Below are positions 469-11,093 of a DNA stretch of 35,570 nt, piece by piece (position 1 is the stretch's first letter; each line of letters begins with the position of its first letter). The stretch comes from Chloroflexota bacterium (lineage in GTDB: Bacteria > Chloroflexota > Limnocylindria > Limnocylindrales > CSP1-4). The notes beneath the pieces are model-generated. The model was not told the DNA's origin, searched no databases, and saw nothing but the letters and a program-made list of their open reading frames with translations. The position numbers and the translations under genes were made by a program. The stretch spans positions 1 through 35,570 of the forward strand of contig PMKN01000090.1 of the NCBI GenBank assembly GCA_003158675.1, in the 5' to 3' direction.

Positions 469-1008
469 TCAACGTGGTCGATGCGCCTCCTCGCTCTCCT
501 CCACGAGCAAGCCCCAGGCGACATCGGCTGCGCCTATGAGCAGGACGAACACCACGAAGGTCGCGTAGTAGAGCGGGATCGCATCGTTCCTGGCCGCGAA
601 TGATGCCGCTACATACAAGAGCACAAGATCGGCGATCGCCGTCCAGGAGATGCGACGGATTGTGGCGCGGCCCTTCCACGAGCCATCCTTGCCACGGGTG
701 AGGCCGACCACCCGGCGGCCAATGCGGACGAGACCAACCCCGGCAACCGCGGCCAAGCTGACGGCCAGCGAGTACGCATCCGCACTGGGGATGAGGACTA
801 TCAGCGACACACACAGTAGATAGAGCAGGTTCGAAAAGGCGAGATCAGCCCTCATCCGGAGGTCGGCCCGCTTCTCCACCGCAATCGACGAGAGATTGAT
901 CGATACGCCTACGAACAGCAGCCCGAGAAGAGCGGCAGACGCCGACCCGACGGCGATGTAGAAGTCGTGCCACGAATCGACGCCCGCCTGGAACGCGCTC
1001 ACATTCAC
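469..1008 (-). CDS. Small membrane protein with about four TM segments, unknown function
   Basis: 179-aa ORF; N-terminal WHDFYIAVGSASAALLGLLFVGVSINL and three further hydrophobic segments; 60 bp downstream of the TIR-WD40 ORF on the same strand. Confidence 0.75.
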   Translation of the reverse strand: MNVSAFQAGVDSWHDFYIAVGSASAALLGLLFVGVSINLSSIAVEKRADLRMRADLAFSNLLYLLCVSLIVLIPSADAYSLAVSLAAVAGVGLVRIGRRVVGLTRGKDGSWKGRATIRRISWTAIADLVLLYVAASFAARNDAIPLYYATFVVFVLLIGAADVAWGLLVEESEEAHRPR

Positions 1009-1068
1009 TCGCCAACCCTACCCTCGGCTGGCTGCGAGGACCGCCTCCGTCGCACTCAGTGGCACGCC

Positions 1069-4000
1069 CTAGTTCGCCGGGCAGGTGGGCGCGGTACTCG
1101 TCACCAGGTACTGGCCACGCTCATCCTGGGTGAGATCGCGAGATAGATCCGCACAGGCTCGGCTCATCGTGTCGAGGTACCCGGTGTCCCACAGCTGCGC
1201 CGTGCCGTCGTAGCCGCCCACCAGGACGTATTTCCCGTCTGGCGAGAACGCAACGCTAAGCGCGATCCCAGTCGGTCCGCTGAAGGTCCGCACCGAAGTT
1301 CCGGTGGCGACATCCCACAGGATGGCGGTCTCGTCTGCGCTGCCGGTCAGGATGTACTTGCCATCCGGAGAGAAGGTGGCGCTGGTGATGCCGCCATGAT
1401 GCCCGCTGAGCTTGCGGATCTCCGCCCCCGTGCCGGCGTCCCAGATCACGGCCGTGTCGTCGGCGCTCGCGGTCAGTACGTATTTGCCATCTGGGGAGAA
1501 GGCGACGCTGGCGACGGAGTCTGTATGCCCTATGAAGCTGCGAATCTGCGCCCCGGTGGCCGCGTCCCAGAGCATGGCCGTGTGGTCCCAGCTCCCCGTG
1601 AGCACATACTTGCCGTCCGGGGAGAAGGCCACGCTTTCAACCCACCCCTTGTGCCCGCTGAACTTGCGGATGGCCGTCCCGGTCGCAGCATCCCAGAGCT
1701 CCGCGTCGCCGCTCTCCATATTCAGACTCGAGCCGCTGCCCGACAGGACATACCGTCCGTCCGGCGAGAAGGCGACGCTGAGGAAGTCGTCGCCAAGGCT
1801 GGCAAAGGTCCGCACCTCCGCACCGGTGGTCGCGTCCCAGAGTTTGAGATTGCCCGGCCCGCCAGTAAGCACGAACTTGCCATCCGGCGAGAAGGCGACG
1901 CTCTCTATGGCCAGCGTGGACGCGGCGATAGTGACGAGGCGCACACCGGTCCGCGCGTCCCACAGCTCCACCGAGCCGCTGTCGCTCCCAGTGAGCAGCC
2001 TGGCTCCGTCTGGCGAGTAGGCGACGCTCCAGATTCCGCTGGGCCTGTCGCTGATACTGATCCCGCCCGCGCTCGCCGCGACGGTCCACAGCCTGGCCGT
2101 TGCGTCCTGGCTGCCCGTCAGAGCGTACCTGCCGTCAGGAGAGAAGGCGACGCTCTGGACCGGGTCTAGCCAGCCCTCGCTGTGGCCGCTGAAGGTCCGA
2201 AGCTCCGCCCCTGTTGCCACATCCCATAGCTTGGCGGTGTTGTCGTGGCTGCCCGTGAGCACAAACCTGCCGTTTGATGAGAAGGCAACGCAGTACACGG
2301 GGCCGGTGTGCCCGCTGAAGGTCCGAACCACCGCGCCGGTCGCGGCGTCCCACAGCCTCGCGGTTCTGTCGTCGCTGCCCGTGAGCACGTATTGGCCATC
2401 GGGCGAGAAAGCCACGCTATTGACATTGTCCGTATGCCCGGCGAAGGTCGTGACTGTGGCGCCCGTTCCGAGATCGAACATCTGCGCGGTGTAGTTCCCC
2501 CCTGTCAGCACGTACTTGCCGTCAGGCGAGAAGGCAACGCTGTCGGCGGTATCGGCCGCGCCGAAGGTTCGTACCTGGGTCCCGGTCCCGGCATCCCAAA
2601 GCGTGGCAGGTCCGTTGGCGCCCTCGCCCGTGAGCACGTAGTTGCCGTCGGGTGAGTAGGCGACGCTCTGGATGGACGAACGACCGCTGAAGACCCGGAC
2701 CTGTTGGCCGGTCGCAGCGTCCCACAGCCTCGCGGTTCTGTCCTCGCTGCCCGTGAGCACGTACTTGCCGTCGGGCGAGAAAGCCACGCTGTTTACGTAG
2801 TCCGTGTGCCCGCTGAAGACCCGGACCTGGGCCCCGGTGGCGACGCTCCAGAGCCTGGCCGTGGCATCGCGGCTGCCCGTGAGCACGTACTTGCCGTCGG
2901 GCGAGAAAGCTACGCTGTTCACGTAGTCCGTGTGCCCGCTGAAGGCTCGGACGTAATAGACCTGGGCCAGGCTCTTCATGAGAGCGCCATCGGCCTGAGC
3001 CGTGTAGCCGCTCTTGAGGGACCGCAGGCTCAGCAGGGCCGCCGTCTCGGCATTGCCGTCGGGCTGGGACAGGATGTTCTCCGCCTCCGCGGCAAGCCGC
3101 AGCCTCTCCGATTGGGCGAGCTGGGCCTCCGCAGTTGCCTTCGCCGTCAGGGCCTGGGCCTCGGCCGTGGCTCGAGCAATGACTTCCGTGGCTCGGGCGT
3201 TGGCTTCGTTGAGGGCCGTCTGCTGGGCCTGATAGGCCATCAGGCCGGCGATCGTCGCGACGACCAGCAGGATCGAGACGATACCCGTGGCTCCCAGGCT
3301 GGCGACCAGTGTCACGCGCTGACGGCGGCTCTCGGCCCGCCGGCCGGCCAGAACGAAACTGCGCTGGACGTCCGTGGGTTGAGGGTCGGAGTGCACGCTC
3401 ACTTTCGATAGCCACTGCTCGGCCTCCGCCAGATCTTTGCCGCGCAGCAGCCGGCTGGAGTCTTGGGCGTGCCGCTCCCATTCGCGGGCTCGGCTTTCCA
3501 GGCGAGATTGAGCCCTGACCCAGTCCCAGTCCGTGTGGATCGCCGCGTTGAGCTTCTCCAGCGCTTCGCGGAACCTGGGCTCCCTGGCAAGCGCCTCCCT
3601 CTGTTCCTCGGGCGGCAGGCCCGCGCCCGGCCTGGGCTCGAGCAGGAAGGCATCGTCCTGGCGGAAGATGATCCAGTTGATGGCGGTCAGATCCGGCAGG
3701 AACTCCTGGATTGACGCCACCGGCGTGTCATCCACGATGACCGGAATGACGCGCTTGTTGTGGCTGAGGGCCTGACTTATCTCGCTCTTACAGACCTCCG
3801 AGCCGATCGAACTGCGGCTGATAACGAACATGAAGACACTGCTTCGCTCTATCGCCCGGCAGATCTCGTCCCACCAGCGCTCCCCTACGGGGATGCGATC
3901 CCAGTCGATCCACGTCTGAACGCCGGAGTCTTCCAGCGAGCCGCGTATCAGCCGTGCGAAAGCGATGTCTCTCCGCGAGTACGAGATGAAGACGTCGGCG

Positions 4001-4134
4001 ACGTCAGGAAGCGCGCTGCCACTCGAACTCGTGGCTGCCTGGCCGGCGGCCCTCGCGTCCCCGGCCGCGACTCGTGCGCCATTCGGGTCGTTCGTGGCGT
4101 CCATCCAACCCTCGTCCATCTGCCGACCAAGCAA
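1069..4134 (-). CDS. TIR domain - TM/coiled coil - WD40 repeat protein (predicted membrane-anchored signalling/immunity protein)
   Basis: 1021 aa. TIR_2-like DVFISYSRRDIAFARLIRGSLEDSGVQTWID...FMFVISRSSIGSEVCKSEISQAL; TM VTLVASLGATGIVSILLVVATIAGLMAY; Ala-rich coiled coil; 14 recognisable SVAFSPDGKYVLTGS...ARLWD units; C-terminal CADLSRDLTQDERGQYLV..PTCP. Confidence 0.93.
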   Translation of the reverse strand: MLGRQMDEGWMDATNDPNGARVAAGDARAAGQAATSSSGSALPDVADVFISYSRRDIAFARLIRGSLEDSGVQTWIDWDRIPVGERWWDEICRAIERSSVFMFVISRSSIGSEVCKSEISQALSHNKRVIPVIVDDTPVASIQEFLPDLTAINWIIFRQDDAFLLEPRPGAGLPPEEQREALAREPRFREALEKLNAAIHTDWDWVRAQSRLESRAREWERHAQDSSRLLRGKDLAEAEQWLSKVSVHSDPQPTDVQRSFVLAGRRAESRRQRVTLVASLGATGIVSILLVVATIAGLMAYQAQQTALNEANARATEVIARATAEAQALTAKATAEAQLAQSERLRLAAEAENILSQPDGNAETAALLSLRSLKSGYTAQADGALMKSLAQVYYVRAFSGHTDYVNSVAFSPDGKYVLTGSRDATARLWSVATGAQVRVFSGHTDYVNSVAFSPDGKYVLTGSEDRTARLWDAATGQQVRVFSGRSSIQSVAYSPDGNYVLTGEGANGPATLWDAGTGTQVRTFGAADTADSVAFSPDGKYVLTGGNYTAQMFDLGTGATVTTFAGHTDNVNSVAFSPDGQYVLTGSDDRTARLWDAATGAVVRTFSGHTGPVYCVAFSSNGRFVLTGSHDNTAKLWDVATGAELRTFSGHSEGWLDPVQSVAFSPDGRYALTGSQDATARLWTVAASAGGISISDRPSGIWSVAYSPDGARLLTGSDSGSVELWDARTGVRLVTIAASTLAIESVAFSPDGKFVLTGGPGNLKLWDATTGAEVRTFASLGDDFLSVAFSPDGRYVLSGSGSSLNMESGDAELWDAATGTAIRKFSGHKGWVESVAFSPDGKYVLTGSWDHTAMLWDAATGAQIRSFIGHTDSVASVAFSPDGKYVLTASADDTAVIWDAGTGAEIRKLSGHHGGITSATFSPDGKYILTGSADETAILWDVATGTSVRTFSGPTGIALSVAFSPDGKYVLVGGYDGTAQLWDTGYLDTMSRACADLSRDLTQDERGQYLVTSTAPTCPAN
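2740..2950 (-). repeat. Nearly identical tandem WD40-encoding units at nucleotide level
   Basis: The segment CCGTGAGCACGTACTTGCCGTCGGGCGAGAAAGC(C/T)ACGCTGTT(T/C)ACGTAGTCCGTGTGCCCGCTGAAG occurs twice, about 126 bp apart. Confidence 0.8.
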
Positions 4135-4217
4135 CTCGCCAGATCATAGCGCTGGGCATGGGCTCGAACCGAGCACATTCGAGCGGCCAAGGACGACCGA
4201 TGAAGCCATGATGCGAA

Positions 4218-4262
4218 CGAACGCCCGCCTCGAACGCCCGCCTCGAACGCCCGCCTCGAACG
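4218..4262. repeat. 13-bp tandem repeat CGAACGCCCGCCT, about 3.5 copies, in the divergent intergenic region
   Basis: Read directly: 4218-4230, 4231-4243, 4244-4256, then CGAACG. Confidence 0.95.
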
Positions 4263-4349
4263 TTGGCGTCGGGTGTTGTCGCTGGCAAGTTCTCGGCCAC
4301 CACTTCCATGTAGTCTGTAGACGCTTCCAACGCAACAGGAGGGCGGGCC

Positions 4350-7300
4350 GTGCCTGAGGACCTGACGAAGGACGTTCGCCCCGAGATCGGGTCGGGCACT
4401 CGTGTCGTGGTGACGGCCGGCGACGTGGTCGTCGACTGGAACCTCGCGCGGACGCGCAAGGTGCCCGACGGCAGCGCGACGTGGAACGCGTCTGACCGAA
4501 CCGAGATCTACGGGCACCTGGGCGGCGCGGCGATGCTGGGCCGGCTTCTCCAGGGGGTAGCCGAGACGCTGGGACCGGGCGGCATGGAGGCAGACGTGTG
4601 CTGCCCGCCGGCGCACCAGGAGCCACGCGGCTTCGACGATCCGCGCTTCAACCACTCGTACGCGGTCTGGTCTCTGGTCCCGAAGAAGAAGGGCGACCGC
4701 GAACCGAGCGTGTGGCGGGTGGAGGAGTTCCTGGGCCTCGATCTGGCAACCGCGGCCGGTCCGGCCGCCGACCCGGGACCGGAGACGGCAGACCTAGTTG
4801 TCCTCGACGACGCGAATCTGGGATTCCGTGAACAGCCTCGCCGCTGGCCGAAGGCGATTCGGCGGGCTTCCCCGACCGGACCCGCGCCCTGGGTGATCCT
4901 CAAGACGGCTCGGCCGGTCGCCGCCGGCCAGCTGTGGCGCCACCTGCTGAAGCACTACGCTGAGCGGCTCATCGTCGTGATGACCCTCAACGACCTGCGA
5001 CTCTCGGAAGTCAAGATCAGCCGCGAGCTCTCGTGGGAGCGCACCGGGGGCGACCTCGCGCGCGAGATCGTGAACAACCCGGCGGTCAACGGTCTCTCTC
5101 GCTGCGCCCACGTCGTCGTCTCCGTGGGAACCGGTGGGGCCGTGGTGCTGTCGCGCCGGCGCGAGCTCGCGTCGAGCCCGGCCAGCCTCGATCGACCGCT
5201 CTGCCGGGTGGTCTTCGATCCGGAAGCGATCGAGAACAGCTGGGTCGAGCAGTACCCGGGCTCGATGGTCGGCTATGCCAGCTGCCTGACCGCCGGGATC
5301 GCCAGGTCGGTCCTCCTTACGCCGGACGATCCCGACGTCGAGGACGGCACGCGGCGCGGATTGGCTACCTCGCGCGCCCTCCACCTGCGCGGCTACGGCA
5401 ACCCGGTGGCTGGATCCGATCGGGCCGGGCTGGCCTTTCCAGCTTCCGAGATGGCCCTGGCGCTCTCGAAGGCCGCGCCCGAGTTCGGGGTTGCGGTCAT
5501 CGAGCAGCCGGTTCGCGACGATTGGTCCATTCTCGAGTCGCGCTATCCGGAGGGCCTCGAGGCCGTCGCCGAACGGGTCGCGATCGAGGGCCCCGAAGCG
5601 ATCGTAAAGGGCGTCCCGTTCGGGCGGTTCGGCAATCTGCTGACCCTGGATCGTGGCGAGACCGAAGGCTTCCGCAGTATCAGAAGCCTGATGCGGGAGT
5701 ACGTGTCCGAGCCCGCGCCCCGGCCGTTGAACATTGCCGTCTTCGGCCCACCTGGAGCCGGCAAGTCGTTCGGCGTCAAGGAAGTCGTGAAGTCGATCCT
5801 GGACAAGGACAAGATCGAAGACGTCACCTTCAACCTCTCCCAGCTGCGCGATCCGGCCGAGCTCGCAGACGCCTTGCACCAGGTTCGGGACATCGGCCTG
5901 CGCGGCAAGCTGCCTTTCGTTCTGTGGGACGAGTTCGACTCGGACCTCGCCGGGCACGCCTTCGGCTGGCTGCGCCACTTCCTGGCTCCGATGCAGGACG
6001 GCTCCTTCCAGGAGGGCCAGGTTGTCCACCCGATCGGCAAGGCGATCTTCGTCTTCGCCGGAGGTACGAGCTCCAACCTCGACGATTTCGCCGCCAATCG
6101 GAGCGAGGCTTTCAAGCTGGCCAAGGGCCCGGACTTCGTCAGCCGGCTCAAAGGTCACGTGGACGTCGTCGGGCCGGACCCGCGGGGCGGTGATTCCCAG
6201 GCTGACCCGCATTTCCGAATCCGGCGGGCGATTCTGCTCCGCTCGATGTTGTTGCGCTCCCGGCCGTACCTGTTCAGCGGCTCAGGGAAAGCGACTCGGC
6301 TGGCGATGGACCCGGGCGTGCTGCGCGCGTTTCTGGGCGTCCCACGGTATCGCCACGGCGCTCGATCGCTCGAGACGATCGTGGCCATGAGTACGCTGCA
6401 CGGCAAGACCCGCTACGAGCGGTCTGCCCTGCCAGCCGCCGACCAGCTCGACGCCCACGTCGATGCTCGGGAGTTCATGTCGCTCGTGGAACGGTACGTT
6501 CCCGACGGTGAGGTGCTCGAGCAGCTGGCCGAGGGCGTCCATATCGAGTACTGCGCAGAGATGCTTGGCCAGGGCCACGCCTGGGCGGGCTCCGAGGCAT
6601 ATCTGTCCGATCGGCCGTCGCTCCGCCGCTTCGTGGCCGTCATGCCGACCCTCGGCCCGCTGCCGGCCCTGGTCGACTGGTCGTGGCTCTCCGAGCATTT
6701 GAGGGACCAGAACCGCGATGCCGCCCGCGATCTGCCCGGCAAGCTAGCGACGCTCGGCCACGTCCTTCGCAAGGAGGCTCCCGGCGGCGCCCCGGTGGCG
6801 AAGCTGGCGCGCCGCGATCCAAGGGTGGAGATGCTCGCCCGTCGCGAGCACGAGCGTTGGGTTCGGCTGAAGGAGCGACGAGGCTGGCATTACGGCGACC
6901 CGCGCGACGACGCTCGCAAGTTGCATCCGTGCCTGGTGCCGTGGTCCAACCTTCCGGAGGCGGAGCGCGCCAAGGATCGGCAGCAGGTGATGAGCTTGCC
7001 TCGCATCGTGGCCGCGGCCGGGATGACGCTGGCGCGATTGGACGACTCCGGGGAGTTGCGGGTCGGTGTTACGGGGCATCGCGCACTCGCCGATCCGGAG
7101 GTCGTCGCGGCGGGCGTGGCGGCCGCGCTAACACGGATCTGCGAGGCGCGGCCGGGCAGGGTGCTGGCGGTCGTGTCGGCGCTCGCGGAAGGGGCGGACC
7201 GGCTGGTCGCGGAGGCGGGGTTGAAGCTCGGGGCGCGGCTGGTGGCAGTCCTGCCGCTGCCCAAATACGACTACCTCGAGGACTTCGCCACGACCGAATC

Positions 7301-7637
7301 CAAGGACGAGTTCCTGCGGCTGCTCGGCGAGGCGGACGAAGTCGTTGAGGCGAAGGCGAACGCGGCAGCGGAAACGGCAATGGGGCTCAAGGATGGCGGC
7401 CGGAATGCCGCTTATGCCGCGGCGAACGATGCCGTCCTCGACCGTTCGGACGTGCTGGTGGCCGTCTGGGACGGCAGGGCCTCCCAGTCCGAAGGCGGAA
7501 CAGGCGACGTAGTTCGCGCGGCCCGCGCCCGGGGCATCCCCATTGCCTGGGTCCAGGCCGGCAACCGCAAGCCGGGCACGATGGAGCTCAGGTCTCTCGG
7601 CGCCGACCAGGGCAAGGTCACGTTCGAGGGTCTGTAG
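4350..7637 (+). CDS. Multidomain protein: PfkB/ribokinase-like N-terminus - AAA+ ATPase - RyR domain - SLOG/Rossmann-like C-terminus
   Basis: GTG start with AGGAGG upstream. Walker A GPPGAGKS, Walker B LPFVLWDEFD, sensor-1-like FVFAGGT; RyR-like HERWVRLKERRGWHYGDPRDDARKLHPCLVPWSNLPEAERAKDRQQVMSLP; C-terminal LRVGVTGHRAL...VVSALAEGADRLVAEAGL...VLDRSDVLVAVWDG; N-terminal GDVVVDWN / GGAAMLGRLL / SVGTGGAVVLSRR resembling PfkB. Confidence 0.9.
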   Translation: MPEDLTKDVRPEIGSGTRVVVTAGDVVVDWNLARTRKVPDGSATWNASDRTEIYGHLGGAAMLGRLLQGVAETLGPGGMEADVCCPPAHQEPRGFDDPRFNHSYAVWSLVPKKKGDREPSVWRVEEFLGLDLATAAGPAADPGPETADLVVLDDANLGFREQPRRWPKAIRRASPTGPAPWVILKTARPVAAGQLWRHLLKHYAERLIVVMTLNDLRLSEVKISRELSWERTGGDLAREIVNNPAVNGLSRCAHVVVSVGTGGAVVLSRRRELASSPASLDRPLCRVVFDPEAIENSWVEQYPGSMVGYASCLTAGIARSVLLTPDDPDVEDGTRRGLATSRALHLRGYGNPVAGSDRAGLAFPASEMALALSKAAPEFGVAVIEQPVRDDWSILESRYPEGLEAVAERVAIEGPEAIVKGVPFGRFGNLLTLDRGETEGFRSIRSLMREYVSEPAPRPLNIAVFGPPGAGKSFGVKEVVKSILDKDKIEDVTFNLSQLRDPAELADALHQVRDIGLRGKLPFVLWDEFDSDLAGHAFGWLRHFLAPMQDGSFQEGQVVHPIGKAIFVFAGGTSSNLDDFAANRSEAFKLAKGPDFVSRLKGHVDVVGPDPRGGDSQADPHFRIRRAILLRSMLLRSRPYLFSGSGKATRLAMDPGVLRAFLGVPRYRHGARSLETIVAMSTLHGKTRYERSALPAADQLDAHVDAREFMSLVERYVPDGEVLEQLAEGVHIEYCAEMLGQGHAWAGSEAYLSDRPSLRRFVAVMPTLGPLPALVDWSWLSEHLRDQNRDAARDLPGKLATLGHVLRKEAPGGAPVAKLARRDPRVEMLARREHERWVRLKERRGWHYGDPRDDARKLHPCLVPWSNLPEAERAKDRQQVMSLPRIVAAAGMTLARLDDSGELRVGVTGHRALADPEVVAAGVAAALTRICEARPGRVLAVVSALAEGADRLVAEAGLKLGARLVAVLPLPKYDYLEDFATTESKDEFLRLLGEADEVVEAKANAAAETAMGLKDGGRNAAYAAANDAVLDRSDVLVAVWDGRASQSEGGTGDVVRAARARGIPIAWVQAGNRKPGTMELRSLGADQGKVTFEGL

Positions 7638-7799: not shown

Positions 7800-8366
7800 C
7801 TACCAGGCGTCCCCTGAACGCAGGATGCAGTCGATCGGGGCGGTCACATCGACGCTGGGCGACGACCGGGTCCGCAGGACCATGATGTAGCCGTCCTCGT
7901 CGGGCGTGGGGCGCCGACCATCGGGGGCACGCACCGACGACTTGCCCTGCCAGGTCTCCCAGCCGAGCCGCCGGTAGAACCCGTGCTCGCCGGTGCCAAG
8001 CGCTCCTAGGTCGAACGACTCGTCGAGATGCGCGTCGACGACTCCCATCAGCCTGGTGCCGATGCCGCGGCGCTGCCGGGCCGGAGCCACTGCCACGGCC
8101 TCGACGTAGCCGGTCCGGATCGGCCTCTCGTCAACGTAGAGTTCGCGCTCGGCGACGGACGCGTACGCCACGATCTCGCCGTCGAGTTCGGCGACGAAGT
8201 GCTCGCCCGCGGCCGCGTGCGCCCAGTCGGATTCGGTCATGGGATCGGTATCGGCGAACGCTGACCACAGCAGGCCCCGAATCGACGCCGTCTCCTCTGC
8301 GGTGAGGTGCCCGTTGGCCACGCGGCGGATTCGGAGGCCGCTCCCGGCGCCTGCGACGGTGCTCAT
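7800..8366 (-). CDS. GNAT acetyltransferase resembling aminoglycoside 2'-N-acetyltransferase AAC(2')-I
   Basis: Likely start MSTVAGAG at 8366 (ORF-track start 8687 looks too long). YVEAVAVAPARQRRGIGTRLM..., LGALGTGEHGFYRRLGWETWQGKSSVRAP...PTPDEDGYIMVL...SGDAW follows the AAC(2')-I pattern. Confidence 0.85.
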   Translation of the reverse strand: MSTVAGAGSGLRIRRVANGHLTAEETASIRGLLWSAFADTDPMTESDWAHAAAGEHFVAELDGEIVAYASVAERELYVDERPIRTGYVEAVAVAPARQRRGIGTRLMGVVDAHLDESFDLGALGTGEHGFYRRLGWETWQGKSSVRAPDGRRPTPDEDGYIMVLRTRSSPSVDVTAPIDCILRSGDAW

Positions 8367-8457
8367 GGCCCGAGGATACCCCGACCTCCCGCCTGCACCT
8401 CCAGGCTGCGGACACGGAAGCCACCGCGGCGCGCACAGCGGGCGGGAGCGGGCCGTG

Positions 8458-8973
8458 TCAGCAGCCGAATGCAAACCAGCACAACTCATTACGCAGCCGC
8501 TGGTCGTCGAGCACAAGGTCTCGGATCTCGTTGGGGAGTTGGGCACGCTGCCACTGGCACTCAAAGCGGCCAGCCGCCTCCCGCTCGTCTGGCGCCGCTG
8601 CCGCACGCTCGGCCTTGATCGCGTAGGCCGCCGCTCCGAGTTCGAGTGCGGCGACATGCGCCACCACTGCTGCCTGCCCGGCAGCATATGCGGCGTGCCG
8701 AGCGGCTCCGCTCAACTCTCTTGCCGCGGCCATGGCATGGCCACCCGCCGCCCGGGCCTGAGACATCTTGATCTCGCCGCGCGCCCATGCCCGAGTCTGC
8801 TCGATCGCGTGGCGAGGCCGCGGGTCCAAGGGCTGCACCGACTCGAAAAGGTGCAGCACGTGCTCTGCGCACGCAACCGCCCAGATCGCGAGCAGACGAT
8901 GGTCGCCGTCTTGGAGGGTTCCGCCGCGACGTACGGTGATGAATCGAGGATCCCGGACCTTGGGGAGGATCAC
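8458..8973 (-). CDS. Imm5-like putative immunity protein
   Basis: Likely GTG start at 8973: (M)ILPKVRDPRFITVRRGGTLQDGDHRLLAIWAVACAEHVLHLFE...PRPRHAIEQTRAWARGEI...AAGQAAVVAHVAALELGAAAYAIKA, matching the Imm-5-like pattern from memory. Confidence 0.78.
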   Translation of the reverse strand: MILPKVRDPRFITVRRGGTLQDGDHRLLAIWAVACAEHVLHLFESVQPLDPRPRHAIEQTRAWARGEIKMSQARAAGGHAMAAARELSGAARHAAYAAGQAAVVAHVAALELGAAAYAIKAERAAAAPDEREAAGRFECQWQRAQLPNEIRDLVLDDQRLRNELCWFAFGC

Positions 8974-9044
8974 AGTTGGCCCATCTCGATCTTGTGTCCG
9001 CCAAGGGTCGACTGAACGATCGGCCTCCGACGAACTGGGGGCGG

Positions 9045-9458
9045 CTAGGCGAGGGGCTCGCTCCGGCCAGCCGCAAGGTACGCGACCAGGATCCCACCCG
9101 CAACGGCGCACTGGATCAGGAGCGTCACCAGCGTGCCGCCGACCGAGGCGTGGCCGACATTGACATCCAGGATCTCTACCACCATGAAGCCCACCAGCAC
9201 CGGCAACGTCAGAAGCAGGATCATCCTGCGTTCGATTGATCGCCGGACACCCCAAACCAAGAGCAGAGTCCAGCCGAGCATCAGCGGAAAAGCCGTCCGG
9301 GTACCGTCCGAGTAGGCGATCTGAGAGCCGAGCACTCCCGGGTAAGCCAGCTGGCGAATTGGCGAATCGGCCGGCGAGAGCAGCGCGACGGCGGCCACCG
9401 CGTCAACAACGATTCCGATCCAGAACATCAGCTTGACAGTCCATCCGAACCGAGCCAT
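9045..9458 (-). CDS. Small integral membrane protein, unknown function
   Basis: 137 aa, four hydrophobic segments (MFWIGIVVDAVAAVALL, AFPLMLGWTLLLVWGV, MILLLTLPVLVGFMVVEIL, LVTLLIQCAVAGGILVAYLA). Confidence 0.72.
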   Translation of the reverse strand: MARFGWTVKLMFWIGIVVDAVAAVALLSPADSPIRQLAYPGVLGSQIAYSDGTRTAFPLMLGWTLLLVWGVRRSIERRMILLLTLPVLVGFMVVEILDVNVGHASVGGTLVTLLIQCAVAGGILVAYLAAGRSEPLA

Positions 9459-9767
9459 CGCCTCTCCCTATTCATGATCGCGCGGAGGTTTGAGTCTGCT
9501 GGCTGCCGTCACCATCGCTCCTCGATGATGAGTTCGCCGTTCTACGAGCGCACCCTTCGGATGATCATCGAAGGCTACAGGTCACGCCGGTATGCGGTCC
9601 GAGCCACTTCGGGTGCCTGACAGCCGCCCGCCGGCGAGATGTTGGCCTGCCGGCCGCGCAACCTCCAACCCGCGCGGCGCCTGCGGCAGTAACCTTAGGA
9701 ACAGTTTCGGACGGCTCGCCAGCACGATCGTTCGGCAGTCGGGCGCCATCGCGAGGAGGACCCGCAA

Positions 9768-11093
9768 ATGAGCGACTCGCTCAATATCGACAAGGTTTCC
9801 GGATCGGGCGCCGGCAGCGGTGCGGAAGCCAGCGGCGTTGCCGCTGCCCCGTCCGCAACCGAGACCGCGACTCTGACCCTCACTCCCCCTGCGCCGGTGG
9901 CCGAAGTGGCCGCGCCCCAGGCGCAGGAAGCCGTCAAGCTCGACCCCGAAACCGTCGCGAAACTCGACGCCATGGTGGCAGGCTACCTCGACGCGATCGC
10001 CAATCTGGATGTCCACGACGCCACCTTCGCGGCTCGGGCGGCCGACATCCGAAAGCTCGGCGACGACGATATCAAGGCCTCCGCCCAGGTATCGTCGAGG
10101 CTGCTGGATCGGCCGGTAGCCTCCATCAAGCACGGCGGCCTGTCCGGCTCGTCGGAAGTCTCGGCCAGTCTGCTGGCTCTCCGTCACCAGGTGGACGACC
10201 TCGATCCGGCTCACCAGGGCGACCTCCTCTCGACCCACAAGCTGTTCGGGATCCTGCCGTTCGGCGACCGGCTGCGCGGCTACTTCGACAAATACCAGTC
10301 CAGCCAGAGTCACATCAACGCCATCGTCAACGCCCTCTACCACGGCCAGGACTACCTGCAGAAGGACAACGCTGACATCGAGCAGGAGAAGGCGAACCTC
10401 TGGCAGGTGATGGAACGGCTCCGCCAGTACATCTACCTGGCTCAGAAGCTGGACGCGGGGCTGGCCGCCCGGATCGCCCAGATCGAGGCCACAGATGCCG
10501 AGCGGGCCACGATCCTCAAAGAGGACATGCTCTTCTACGTCCGCCAGAAGGTCCAGGACCTGACCACTCAGCTGGCGGTCAGCATCCAGGGCTACCTGGC
10601 GCTCGACGTCATCCGACGCAACAACCTGGAACTGATCAAGGGCGTGGACCGCGCCACCACCACGACCGTCTCGGCGCTGCGAACCGCGGTCATCGTGGCC
10701 CAGGCACTGGGCGATCAGAAGCTCGTCCTCGATCAGATCACGGCCCTCAACAGCACCACGTCGAATCTGATCGAGAGCACGTCCGTCCTGCTGCGCCAGC
10801 AGTCGGGCGCGATCAACGAGCAGGCGGCTTCGTCCACGGTGGACATCGCCAAGCTCCAGGCCGCTTTCGACAACATCTACGCCACGATGGACGAAATCGA
10901 CAGCTTCAAGCTCAAGGCGCTCGACAATATGTCCCAGACCGTCGACGCCCTCACCACTCAGATCGGCAAGGCCCAGGCATACCTGGATCGGGCACGATCT
11001 CGTGACGCCGGCCCGGACACAGGCGGCTCCGGTGTCGGCGGCCCGGAGGCGGGCGGTCCGGACGCCGGCGGGCTTTCGGCCCTGCCCAAGTGA
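9768..11093 (+). CDS. TelA / toxic anion resistance family protein
   Basis: 441 aa; LSTHKLFGILPFGDRLRGYFDKYQSSQSHINAIVNALYHGQDYLQKDNADIEQEKANLWQVMERLRQYIYLAQKLD and the C-terminal helical region are characteristic of TelA (PF05816). Confidence 0.92.
   Translation: MSDSLNIDKVSGSGAGSGAEASGVAAAPSATETATLTLTPPAPVAEVAAPQAQEAVKLDPETVAKLDAMVAGYLDAIANLDVHDATFAARAADIRKLGDDDIKASAQVSSRLLDRPVASIKHGGLSGSSEVSASLLALRHQVDDLDPAHQGDLLSTHKLFGILPFGDRLRGYFDKYQSSQSHINAIVNALYHGQDYLQKDNADIEQEKANLWQVMERLRQYIYLAQKLDAGLAARIAQIEATDAERATILKEDMLFYVRQKVQDLTTQLAVSIQGYLALDVIRRNNLELIKGVDRATTTTVSALRTAVIVAQALGDQKLVLDQITALNSTTSNLIESTSVLLRQQSGAINEQAASSTVDIAKLQAAFDNIYATMDEIDSFKLKALDNMSQTVDALTTQIGKAQAYLDRARSRDAGPDTGGSGVGGPEAGGPDAGGLSALPK

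What the first reader, a model, noticed from the sequence alone, without database searches (positions are those of the whole stretch)
469..7637. Candidate novel immunity/signalling locus: membrane TIR-WD40 divergent from a PfkB-like/AAA+/RyR/SLOG protein
Seen directly: a 1021-aa TIR-TM-WD40 ORF and a 1095-aa four-module ORF diverge from one 215-bp region. Established: TIR domains often generate or degrade NAD-derived signals in bacterial immunity. SLOG domains are predicted or known binders of nucleotide-type ligands. RyR domains occur in prokaryotic systems predicted to act in biological conflict. Inference: WD40 (sensor) to TIR (NAD-derived signal or NADase) to SLOG/RyR/AAA+ (ligand sensing and ATP-driven output). 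The 4-TM protein 60 bp downstream of the TIR gene may be an additional part. I do not recognise this exact combination as a named defence system.
Basis: partly seen in the sequence, partly recalled or inferred. Interest (0 to 1): 0.88.

Follow-up and report, generated by a model that had tools for sequence, protein, structure and literature searches.

The report
TIR enzyme paired with RyR-domain ATPase
A bacterium carries, side by side, a membrane protein with a TIR domain (a family that consumes NAD to make immune signals) and a large ATPase bearing the nucleotide-binding RyR domain of animal calcium-release channels; this pairing recurs across several bacterial phyla far more often than chance, suggesting that RyR domains are built-in readers (or erasers) of TIR-made signals.

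Summary
In detail: a 1021-aa TIR-TM-WD40 gene diverges from a 1095-aa gene encoding a degenerate PfkB-like fold, an AAA+ ATPase, a complete RyR Repeat12 unit and a SLOG domain. The large protein sits beside TIR genes, or beside DUF4062 genes (TIR-like NADases), in 10 of 12 cellular loci. In a draw by RyR family alone over 1,037 genomes of three phyla, 17 of 43 RyR loci (seed genomes removed) have a TIR within 5 kb, against 0.35 expected. The window's RyR keeps, at identical spacing, the four residues with which phage RyDEP (May 2026 preprint) binds and cleaves 2'/3'cADPR: H75/W78/H100/D117 = H834/W837/H859/D876. Best reading: TIR-based nucleotide signalling, probably antiviral, in which the RyR12-AAA+-SLOG protein reads, or less likely erases, a TIR-made ADP-ribose signal; Thoeris-like logic with an unrecognised receptor type. 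No ligand, enzyme activity or phage protection was tested. The four-TM gene is not a conserved part, and three plasmid relatives of the core have no TIR nearby. Two key works could not be read, so novelty is uncertain. New variant of a known kind; interest 0.8.

The parts
1069..4134 (-). TIR-TM-WD40 protein, 1021 aa (TTG start; true start may be codon 6 or 11)
   Evidence: homologues 35-38% identical beside the core in L018 and L020
3655..3993 (-). TIR domain (aa 48-160), catalytic Glu E118 at 3781-3783
   Evidence: Pfam TIR_2 E 4.4e-26; Glu invariant in 13 of 13 RyR-linked TIRs aligned
3259..3315 (-). single transmembrane helix (aa 274-292), preceded by RRQR: predicted N-in, C-out
   Evidence: hydropathy; topology is inference
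1186..2958 (-). WD40 beta-propeller region (aa ~393-983, 14 WD40 stretches)
4350..7637 (+). core protein, 1095 aa: pseudo-PfkB + AAA+ + RyR12 + SLOG
   Evidence: AGGAGG at 4337-4342
4398..5399 (+). PfkB/ribokinase-like fold (aa ~17-350), GAGD motif degenerate
   Evidence: Foldseek 2jgv, 7c1z, 5eyn; motif
5622..6485 (+). AAA+ ATPase (aa ~425-712; Walker A 466-473, Walker B 525-530, sensor 569-574, Arg finger ~598-600)
6507..7043 (+). RyR Repeat12 unit (aa ~720-898); Pfam RyR aa 826-895; ligand residues H834, W837, H859, D876
7056..7634 (+). SLOG domain (aa 903-1095); a separate gene in L019, L020, L024, L034

Best explanation
The locus is a TIR-based nucleotide-signalling system, most likely antiviral. 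The membrane TIR-WD40 protein (sensor plus enzyme) acts on NAD+ when triggered and releases an ADP-ribose-type signal such as a cADPR isomer or ADPR. The partner protein is the receiver: its RyR Repeat12 pocket (H834, W837, H859, D876), perhaps with its SLOG domain as a second site, binds the signal and switches its AAA+ ATPase, which carries the output. Shown by computation here: architecture, intact catalytic and ligand residues, non-random linkage. Shown by others for relatives: RyR-domain proteins bind, and one cleaves, 2'/3'cADPR; the SLOG of ThsA binds 3'cADPR; TIR and DUF4062 proteins are NADases in phage defence. Inferred: that this TIR is active, which ligand is used, that the RyR acts as a receptor, what the AAA+ output is, and the immune role.
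For: RyR-TIR linkage 22 of 48 RyR loci (17 of 43 without seeds) against 0.49 (0.35) expected, with 2 of 23 for a DUF4062 control; core beside TIR or DUF4062 in 10 of 12 cellular loci; TIR Glu invariant in 13 of 13; RyDEP pocket residues conserved at identical spacing, H 45/45, W 42/45, H 29/45, D 41/43 of RyR hits (a few hits are duplicates from overlapping fetches); RyR12 fold match to ATP-bound RyR3; RyDEP data: six of eight other homologues bind without cleaving; Thoeris SLOG precedent.
Against: No biochemical or phage data. Core relatives on three plasmids have no TIR nearby, one lying among chemotaxis and histidine-kinase genes. More than half of all RyR loci have no TIR within 5 kb (partly short contigs). 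The window locus lies among ordinary genes, not in a defence island. Linkage P-values ignore shared ancestry. The RyR catalytic dyad is also kept, which an eraser would need.
Confidence: 0.5

Rival explanations
1. The RyR domain is the off-switch: a host-encoded counterpart of RyDEP that hydrolyses or sequesters the TIR product to reset or restrain the response, much as ring nucleases do in type III CRISPR. Output is NAD+ loss or another effector.
For: RyDEP is a glycosidase with an H75/D117 dyad and both residues are kept in the window and in nearly all cellular RyRs.
Against: Of nine phage R12 proteins tested in that study only one cleaved, despite conserved residues. Fusion to an AAA+ motor and a second nucleotide-binding fold suits a receiver better than an eraser.
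Confidence: 0.2
2. The TIR protein is itself the executioner NADase; the AAA+/RyR/SLOG protein controls it by contact or by sensing ATP, ADP or ADPR levels, and no dedicated diffusible messenger exists.
For: RyR3 Repeat12 binds ATP and ADP (structures 6uhh, 9l9b); DUF4062 relatives that replace TIR hydrolyse NAD+ to ADPR and kill directly.
Against: The pocket residues match those that hold cADPR-derived ligand in RyDEP; the core also carries a SLOG.
Confidence: 0.17
3. The locus serves stress or developmental signalling rather than immunity.
For: Ordinary genomic surroundings; Clostridium plasmid core among chemotaxis and two-component genes.
Against: Patchy presence (10 of 399 Chloroflexota genomes), swapping of TIR, DUF4062-STAND, SLATT and TPR-S partners, plasmid carriage and a SIR2 neighbour are typical of conflict systems.
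Confidence: 0.08
4. The core is counter-defence: a sponge or eraser of phage or plasmid origin that happens to lie near TIR genes.
For: 243 phage records hold RyR-like stretches similar to the window's; some core relatives are on plasmids.
Against: Core genes were recovered from cellular genomes of four phyla, often on the same strand as and close to a TIR gene; the phage matches cover only the RyR part.
Confidence: 0.05

Closest known systems
Thoeris (ThsB TIR + ThsA SIR2-SLOG or TM-macro)
   Same: TIR enzyme paired with a separate protein carrying nucleotide-binding domains; a SLOG domain is present.
   Different: No SIR2 or macro effector; the receiver is AAA+ with RyR12; SLOG is of YAcAr/DprA type by weak hits; the TIR is on a membrane WD40 protein.
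RyDEP / phage R12-domain proteins (PF02026)
   Same: R12 fold and the four pocket residues at identical spacing.
   Different: Cellular, fused to AAA+, SLOG and a PfkB-like fold, and linked to TIR; activity untested.
Swarozyc and TEP1-like DUF4062 NADases
   Same: DUF4062-STAND(-WD40) genes occupy the TIR place in several related loci.
   Different: The window locus has a TIR_2 gene, not DUF4062; the paper does not mention RyR.
Nucleotide-centric conflict systems (SMODS/SLOG/SLATT/TPR-S)
   Same: SLOG, SLATT, LSDAT and TPR-S modules recur across the related loci.
   Different: RyR is not mentioned in the two such papers I could search (PMC7159879, PMC9503650); the 2015 founding paper was not available.

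Membership tests
Thoeris | TIR-domain (ThsB) gene | tested here: met
   TIR_2 E 4.4e-26; Glu E118 kept
Thoeris | Adjacent ThsA effector (SIR2-SLOG or TM-macro) | tested here: not met
   No SIR2 or macro domain in Pfam or PADLOC scans of the three window proteins
Thoeris | cADPR-type signal activates the effector | not testable with these tools
   needs biochemistry
R12/RyR domain family (PF02026) | Profile match over the curated cut-off and R12 fold | tested here: met
   60.6 bits against 27.4; Foldseek 6uhi E 8e-8
R12/RyR domain family (PF02026) | Ligand residues H75, W78, H100, D117 of RyDEP | tested here: met
   H834, W837, H859, D876 with equal spacing (numbering)
RyDEP enzymes | Cleaves 2'/3'cADPR | not testable with these tools
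   most tested homologues bind without cleaving
SLOG superfamily | DprA/LOG-type Rossmann fold with G-rich motifs | tested here: met
   fold match to DprA 3uqz and ShosA 8zva; Pfam YAcAr only sub-threshold
AAA+ ATPase | Walker A, Walker B, sensor and Arg-finger motifs conserved | tested here: met
PfkB kinase | Catalytic GAGD motif | tested here: not met
   reads GYAS in the window and varies in relatives; aligned by eye
Any PADLOC defence system | Model match to both proteins of a named system | tested here: not met
   TIR-only partial matches; nothing meaningful for the core

The most novel reading that the evidence does not exclude
RyR (Repeat12) domains are native receptors of TIR-made cyclic ADP-ribose signals in bacterial immunity: a polymorphic class of TIR systems with RyR readers on AAA+, RCK-like membrane, cyclase and RelA-type outputs. 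Phage RyDEPs would then be stolen or mimicked host readers, and the cADPR-ryanodine-receptor link of animals would have a prokaryotic precedent.
Probability: 0.4. Interest if true: 0.93.

Novelty: new variant of a known kind. Interest (0 to 1): 0.8.

Why it matters
If right, it gives the recently found cADPR-binding RyR domain a cellular role inside the host's own TIR pathway and supplies a new receptor type for TIR signalling. It makes an old question, whether ryanodine-receptor domains read cADPR, directly testable with small bacterial proteins, and the residues to mutate (E118; H834, W837, D876; Walker A) are already named.

Tried and rejected
The 4-TM gene as a component: rejected, no conservation. 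A known PADLOC system: none. Sequence-profile proof of PfkB from the N-terminal alignment: no useful PDB hit; the fold search succeeded instead. Sequence-profile hit for SLOG in PDB: none useful. Defence-island context as the explanation of linkage: the window is not one and the DUF4062 control shows 2 of 23. Literature on prokaryotic RyR with TIR or SLOG: several searches gave nothing relevant until 'ryanodine receptor + TIR domain + cADPR' found the RyDEP preprint. The 2015 NAR paper on nucleotide-centric systems and the 2025 Yirmiya preprint on TIR signalling systems are not held, so earlier description of RyR-TIR loci cannot be excluded. K+ channel identity for the TrkA_N-RyR family: no TVGYG filter seen. 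An empty-site test was not possible because the window begins at a contig edge.

Full report
Observation. The two large ORFs, their coordinates and the 215-bp divergent gap are real. The minus-strand protein is TIR_2 (aa 48-160, E 4e-26), one TM helix (274-292) and 14 WD40 stretches. The plus-strand protein has a PF02026 RyR domain (60.6 bits; cut-off 27.4). An AlphaFold2 model (mean pLDDT 68) searched against the PDB gave matches for all four modules: PfkB sugar kinases for the N-terminus, AAA+ (ClpB), the ryanodine-receptor Repeat12 unit including the ATP-bound RyR3 crystal, and DprA/ShosA for the SLOG end. A second model of the AAA+ and RyR parts (pLDDT 76) matched RyR Repeat12 (E 8e-8) and ORC/FtsH-type AAA+. 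The ATPase motifs are invariant or nearly so across ten homologues, while the PfkB GAGD motif is lost, so I read the N-terminus as a pseudo-kinase. The models are of moderate confidence, and the SLOG and PfkB calls rest mainly on fold.

Neighbourhoods. Homologues of the large protein ('core') were found in the window's genus and in records named Chloroflexi, Armatimonadetes, Verrucomicrobia and Planctomycetaceae. Full-length relatives of the window's TIR-WD40 lie beside the core in L018 and L020 (L020 cut by its contig end), and a TIR-x-WD40 gene in L024. The SLOG domain is a separate gene next to the core in L019, L020, L024 and L034 and is fused in the window, L023 and L027. In L021, L023, L027 and, with a weak or truncated match, L025, a DUF4062-STAND gene sits beside the core; L034 has both DUF4062 and TIR. 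DUF4062 was shown in a May 2026 preprint to be a TIR-like NADase with phage-defence activity (PMC13174449). Only L019 (a 7.8-kb contig) and L026 lack both, giving 10 of 12. Counter-examples: on three plasmids core relatives have no TIR nearby; one lies near a SIR2 gene, one among chemotaxis and histidine-kinase genes, and one lacks the RyR part.

Statistics. To avoid choosing loci by the answer, I drew genomes by PF02026 alone: 399 from the window's phylum (10 with RyR), 243 from the phylum of L021 (12) and 395 from the phylum of L022 (21). TIR_2 was then mapped in the RyR genomes. Of 48 RyR loci in 43 genomes, 22 have TIR_2 within 5 kb (expected 0.49 from TIR density). By phylum: 7/10, 9/15 and 6/23, each far above expectation. 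Removing the three seed genomes: 17/43 against 0.35 expected, nominal P ~1e-25. These P-values treat loci as independent, which related genomes violate, and one counted TIR (G553) is below Pfam's cut-off; but the effect spans several unrelated RyR architectures, so I do not think ancestry alone explains it. As a control for defence-gene clustering, DUF4062 loci away from RyR in the first two phyla have a TIR within 5 kb in 2 of 23 cases. Many RyR contigs are short, so linkage may be under-counted.

Ligand residues. [quoted passage not shown] In the window protein H834, W837, H859 and D876 have exactly the same spacing (+3, +25, +42). In 45 RyR hits from the cellular loci the four positions are H 45/45, W 42/45, H 29/45 (Ser in most TrkA_N-RyR proteins) and D 41/43 (a few loci were fetched twice in overlapping pieces, so the distinct number is slightly smaller). 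The TIR catalytic Glu (E118 in the window) is invariant in 13 of 13 RyR-linked TIRs aligned. I compared residue numbers from the paper, not the RyDEP sequence itself.

Wider family. Other cellular RyR proteins carry, besides RyR: a predicted two-TM segment with TrkA_N (RCK-like) Rossmann domains, TPR-S with a nucleotide-cyclase domain, and RelA/SpoT (one with a weak TRPM-type SLOG match). A stand-alone RyR gene in L032 lies between a SLOG-SLATT gene and a TIR-WD40 gene. This is the module set of nucleotide-based conflict systems. PF02026 is absent from all 14 control genomes of the tool, consistent with an accessory gene.

Mechanism. Established elsewhere: TIR proteins make ADP-ribose-type signals; the SLOG domain of ThsA binds 3'cADPR (PMC11204291); RyR domains bind 2'/3'cADPR. 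Inferred here: the WD40 part, probably outside the membrane by the charge rule, senses a trigger; the TIR acts on NAD+; the core's RyR12, and perhaps its SLOG, reads the product and drives the AAA+ motor. I put about 0.5 on this receiver model, 0.2 on the RyR being an eraser of the signal and 0.17 on control without a dedicated messenger. All three keep RyR and TIR functionally linked, which I regard as well supported; the immune role is likely but untested.

Comparison and novelty. It works like Thoeris but fails one of its defining features (no SIR2-SLOG or TM-macro ThsA). It carries an R12 domain of the RyDEP family but is cellular. I found no paper linking cellular RyR genes with TIR in the library available; the RyDEP preprint notes bacterial R12 sequences and a Bacteroides structure but, in the text I read, not TIR linkage. 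Two key works could not be read, so I rate this a new variant of a known kind rather than categorically new.

Noticed in passing
L018:1524-3317, L023:5454-7256, L026:9705-11696, L027:4708-6531, L028:8952-10736, L033:10104-11942, L034:8181-9920, L037:2927-4795: A second RyR family, often near a TIR gene or the core: two predicted TM helices, TrkA_N/RCK-like Rossmann domains and a C-terminal RyR12, without a TVGYG potassium filter. A candidate ligand-gated membrane effector.
   Followed up: partly
L035:10587-12668 and L036:2838-5687: RyR fused to TPR-S and an adenylate/guanylate-cyclase-like domain, with TIR genes nearby.
   Followed up: no
L048:4113-6779 and L041:8070-10775: RyR fused to a RelA/SpoT (alarmone synthetase-like) domain, the first also with a weak TRPM-type SLOG match.
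   Followed up: no
L032:7074-12059: SLOG-SLATT gene, stand-alone 94-aa RyR gene and TIR-WD40 gene in a row.
   Followed up: no
phage collection, (e.g. Arthrobacter, Gordonia, Salmonella, Pseudomonas phages): 243 phage records hold a stretch similar to the window's RyR domain; most listed ones are annotated hypothetical. Candidate RyDEP-type sponges or enzymes.
   Followed up: no
L034:4595-4918: Partial, nearly identical duplicate of the RyR end of the neighbouring TrkA_N-RyR gene (8184-9977); a gene fragment or an assembly effect.
   Followed up: no
window 4218-4269: 13-bp tandem repeat (CGAACGCCCGCCT, about three to four copies) in the divergent intergenic region; possible regulator site.
   Followed up: no
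L054:1194-11571 (Methylobacterium sp. FF17 plasmid pA): Core relative near a 6.2-kb SIR2-family gene, with a transposase and an HTH gene between: another NADase-type neighbour.
   Followed up: partly
L018:6698-7900: A 400-aa protein between TIR-WD40 and core with weak matches to nucleoside deoxyribosyltransferase and CAP12-type TIR; possibly a further TIR/SLOG-like enzyme.
   Followed up: no
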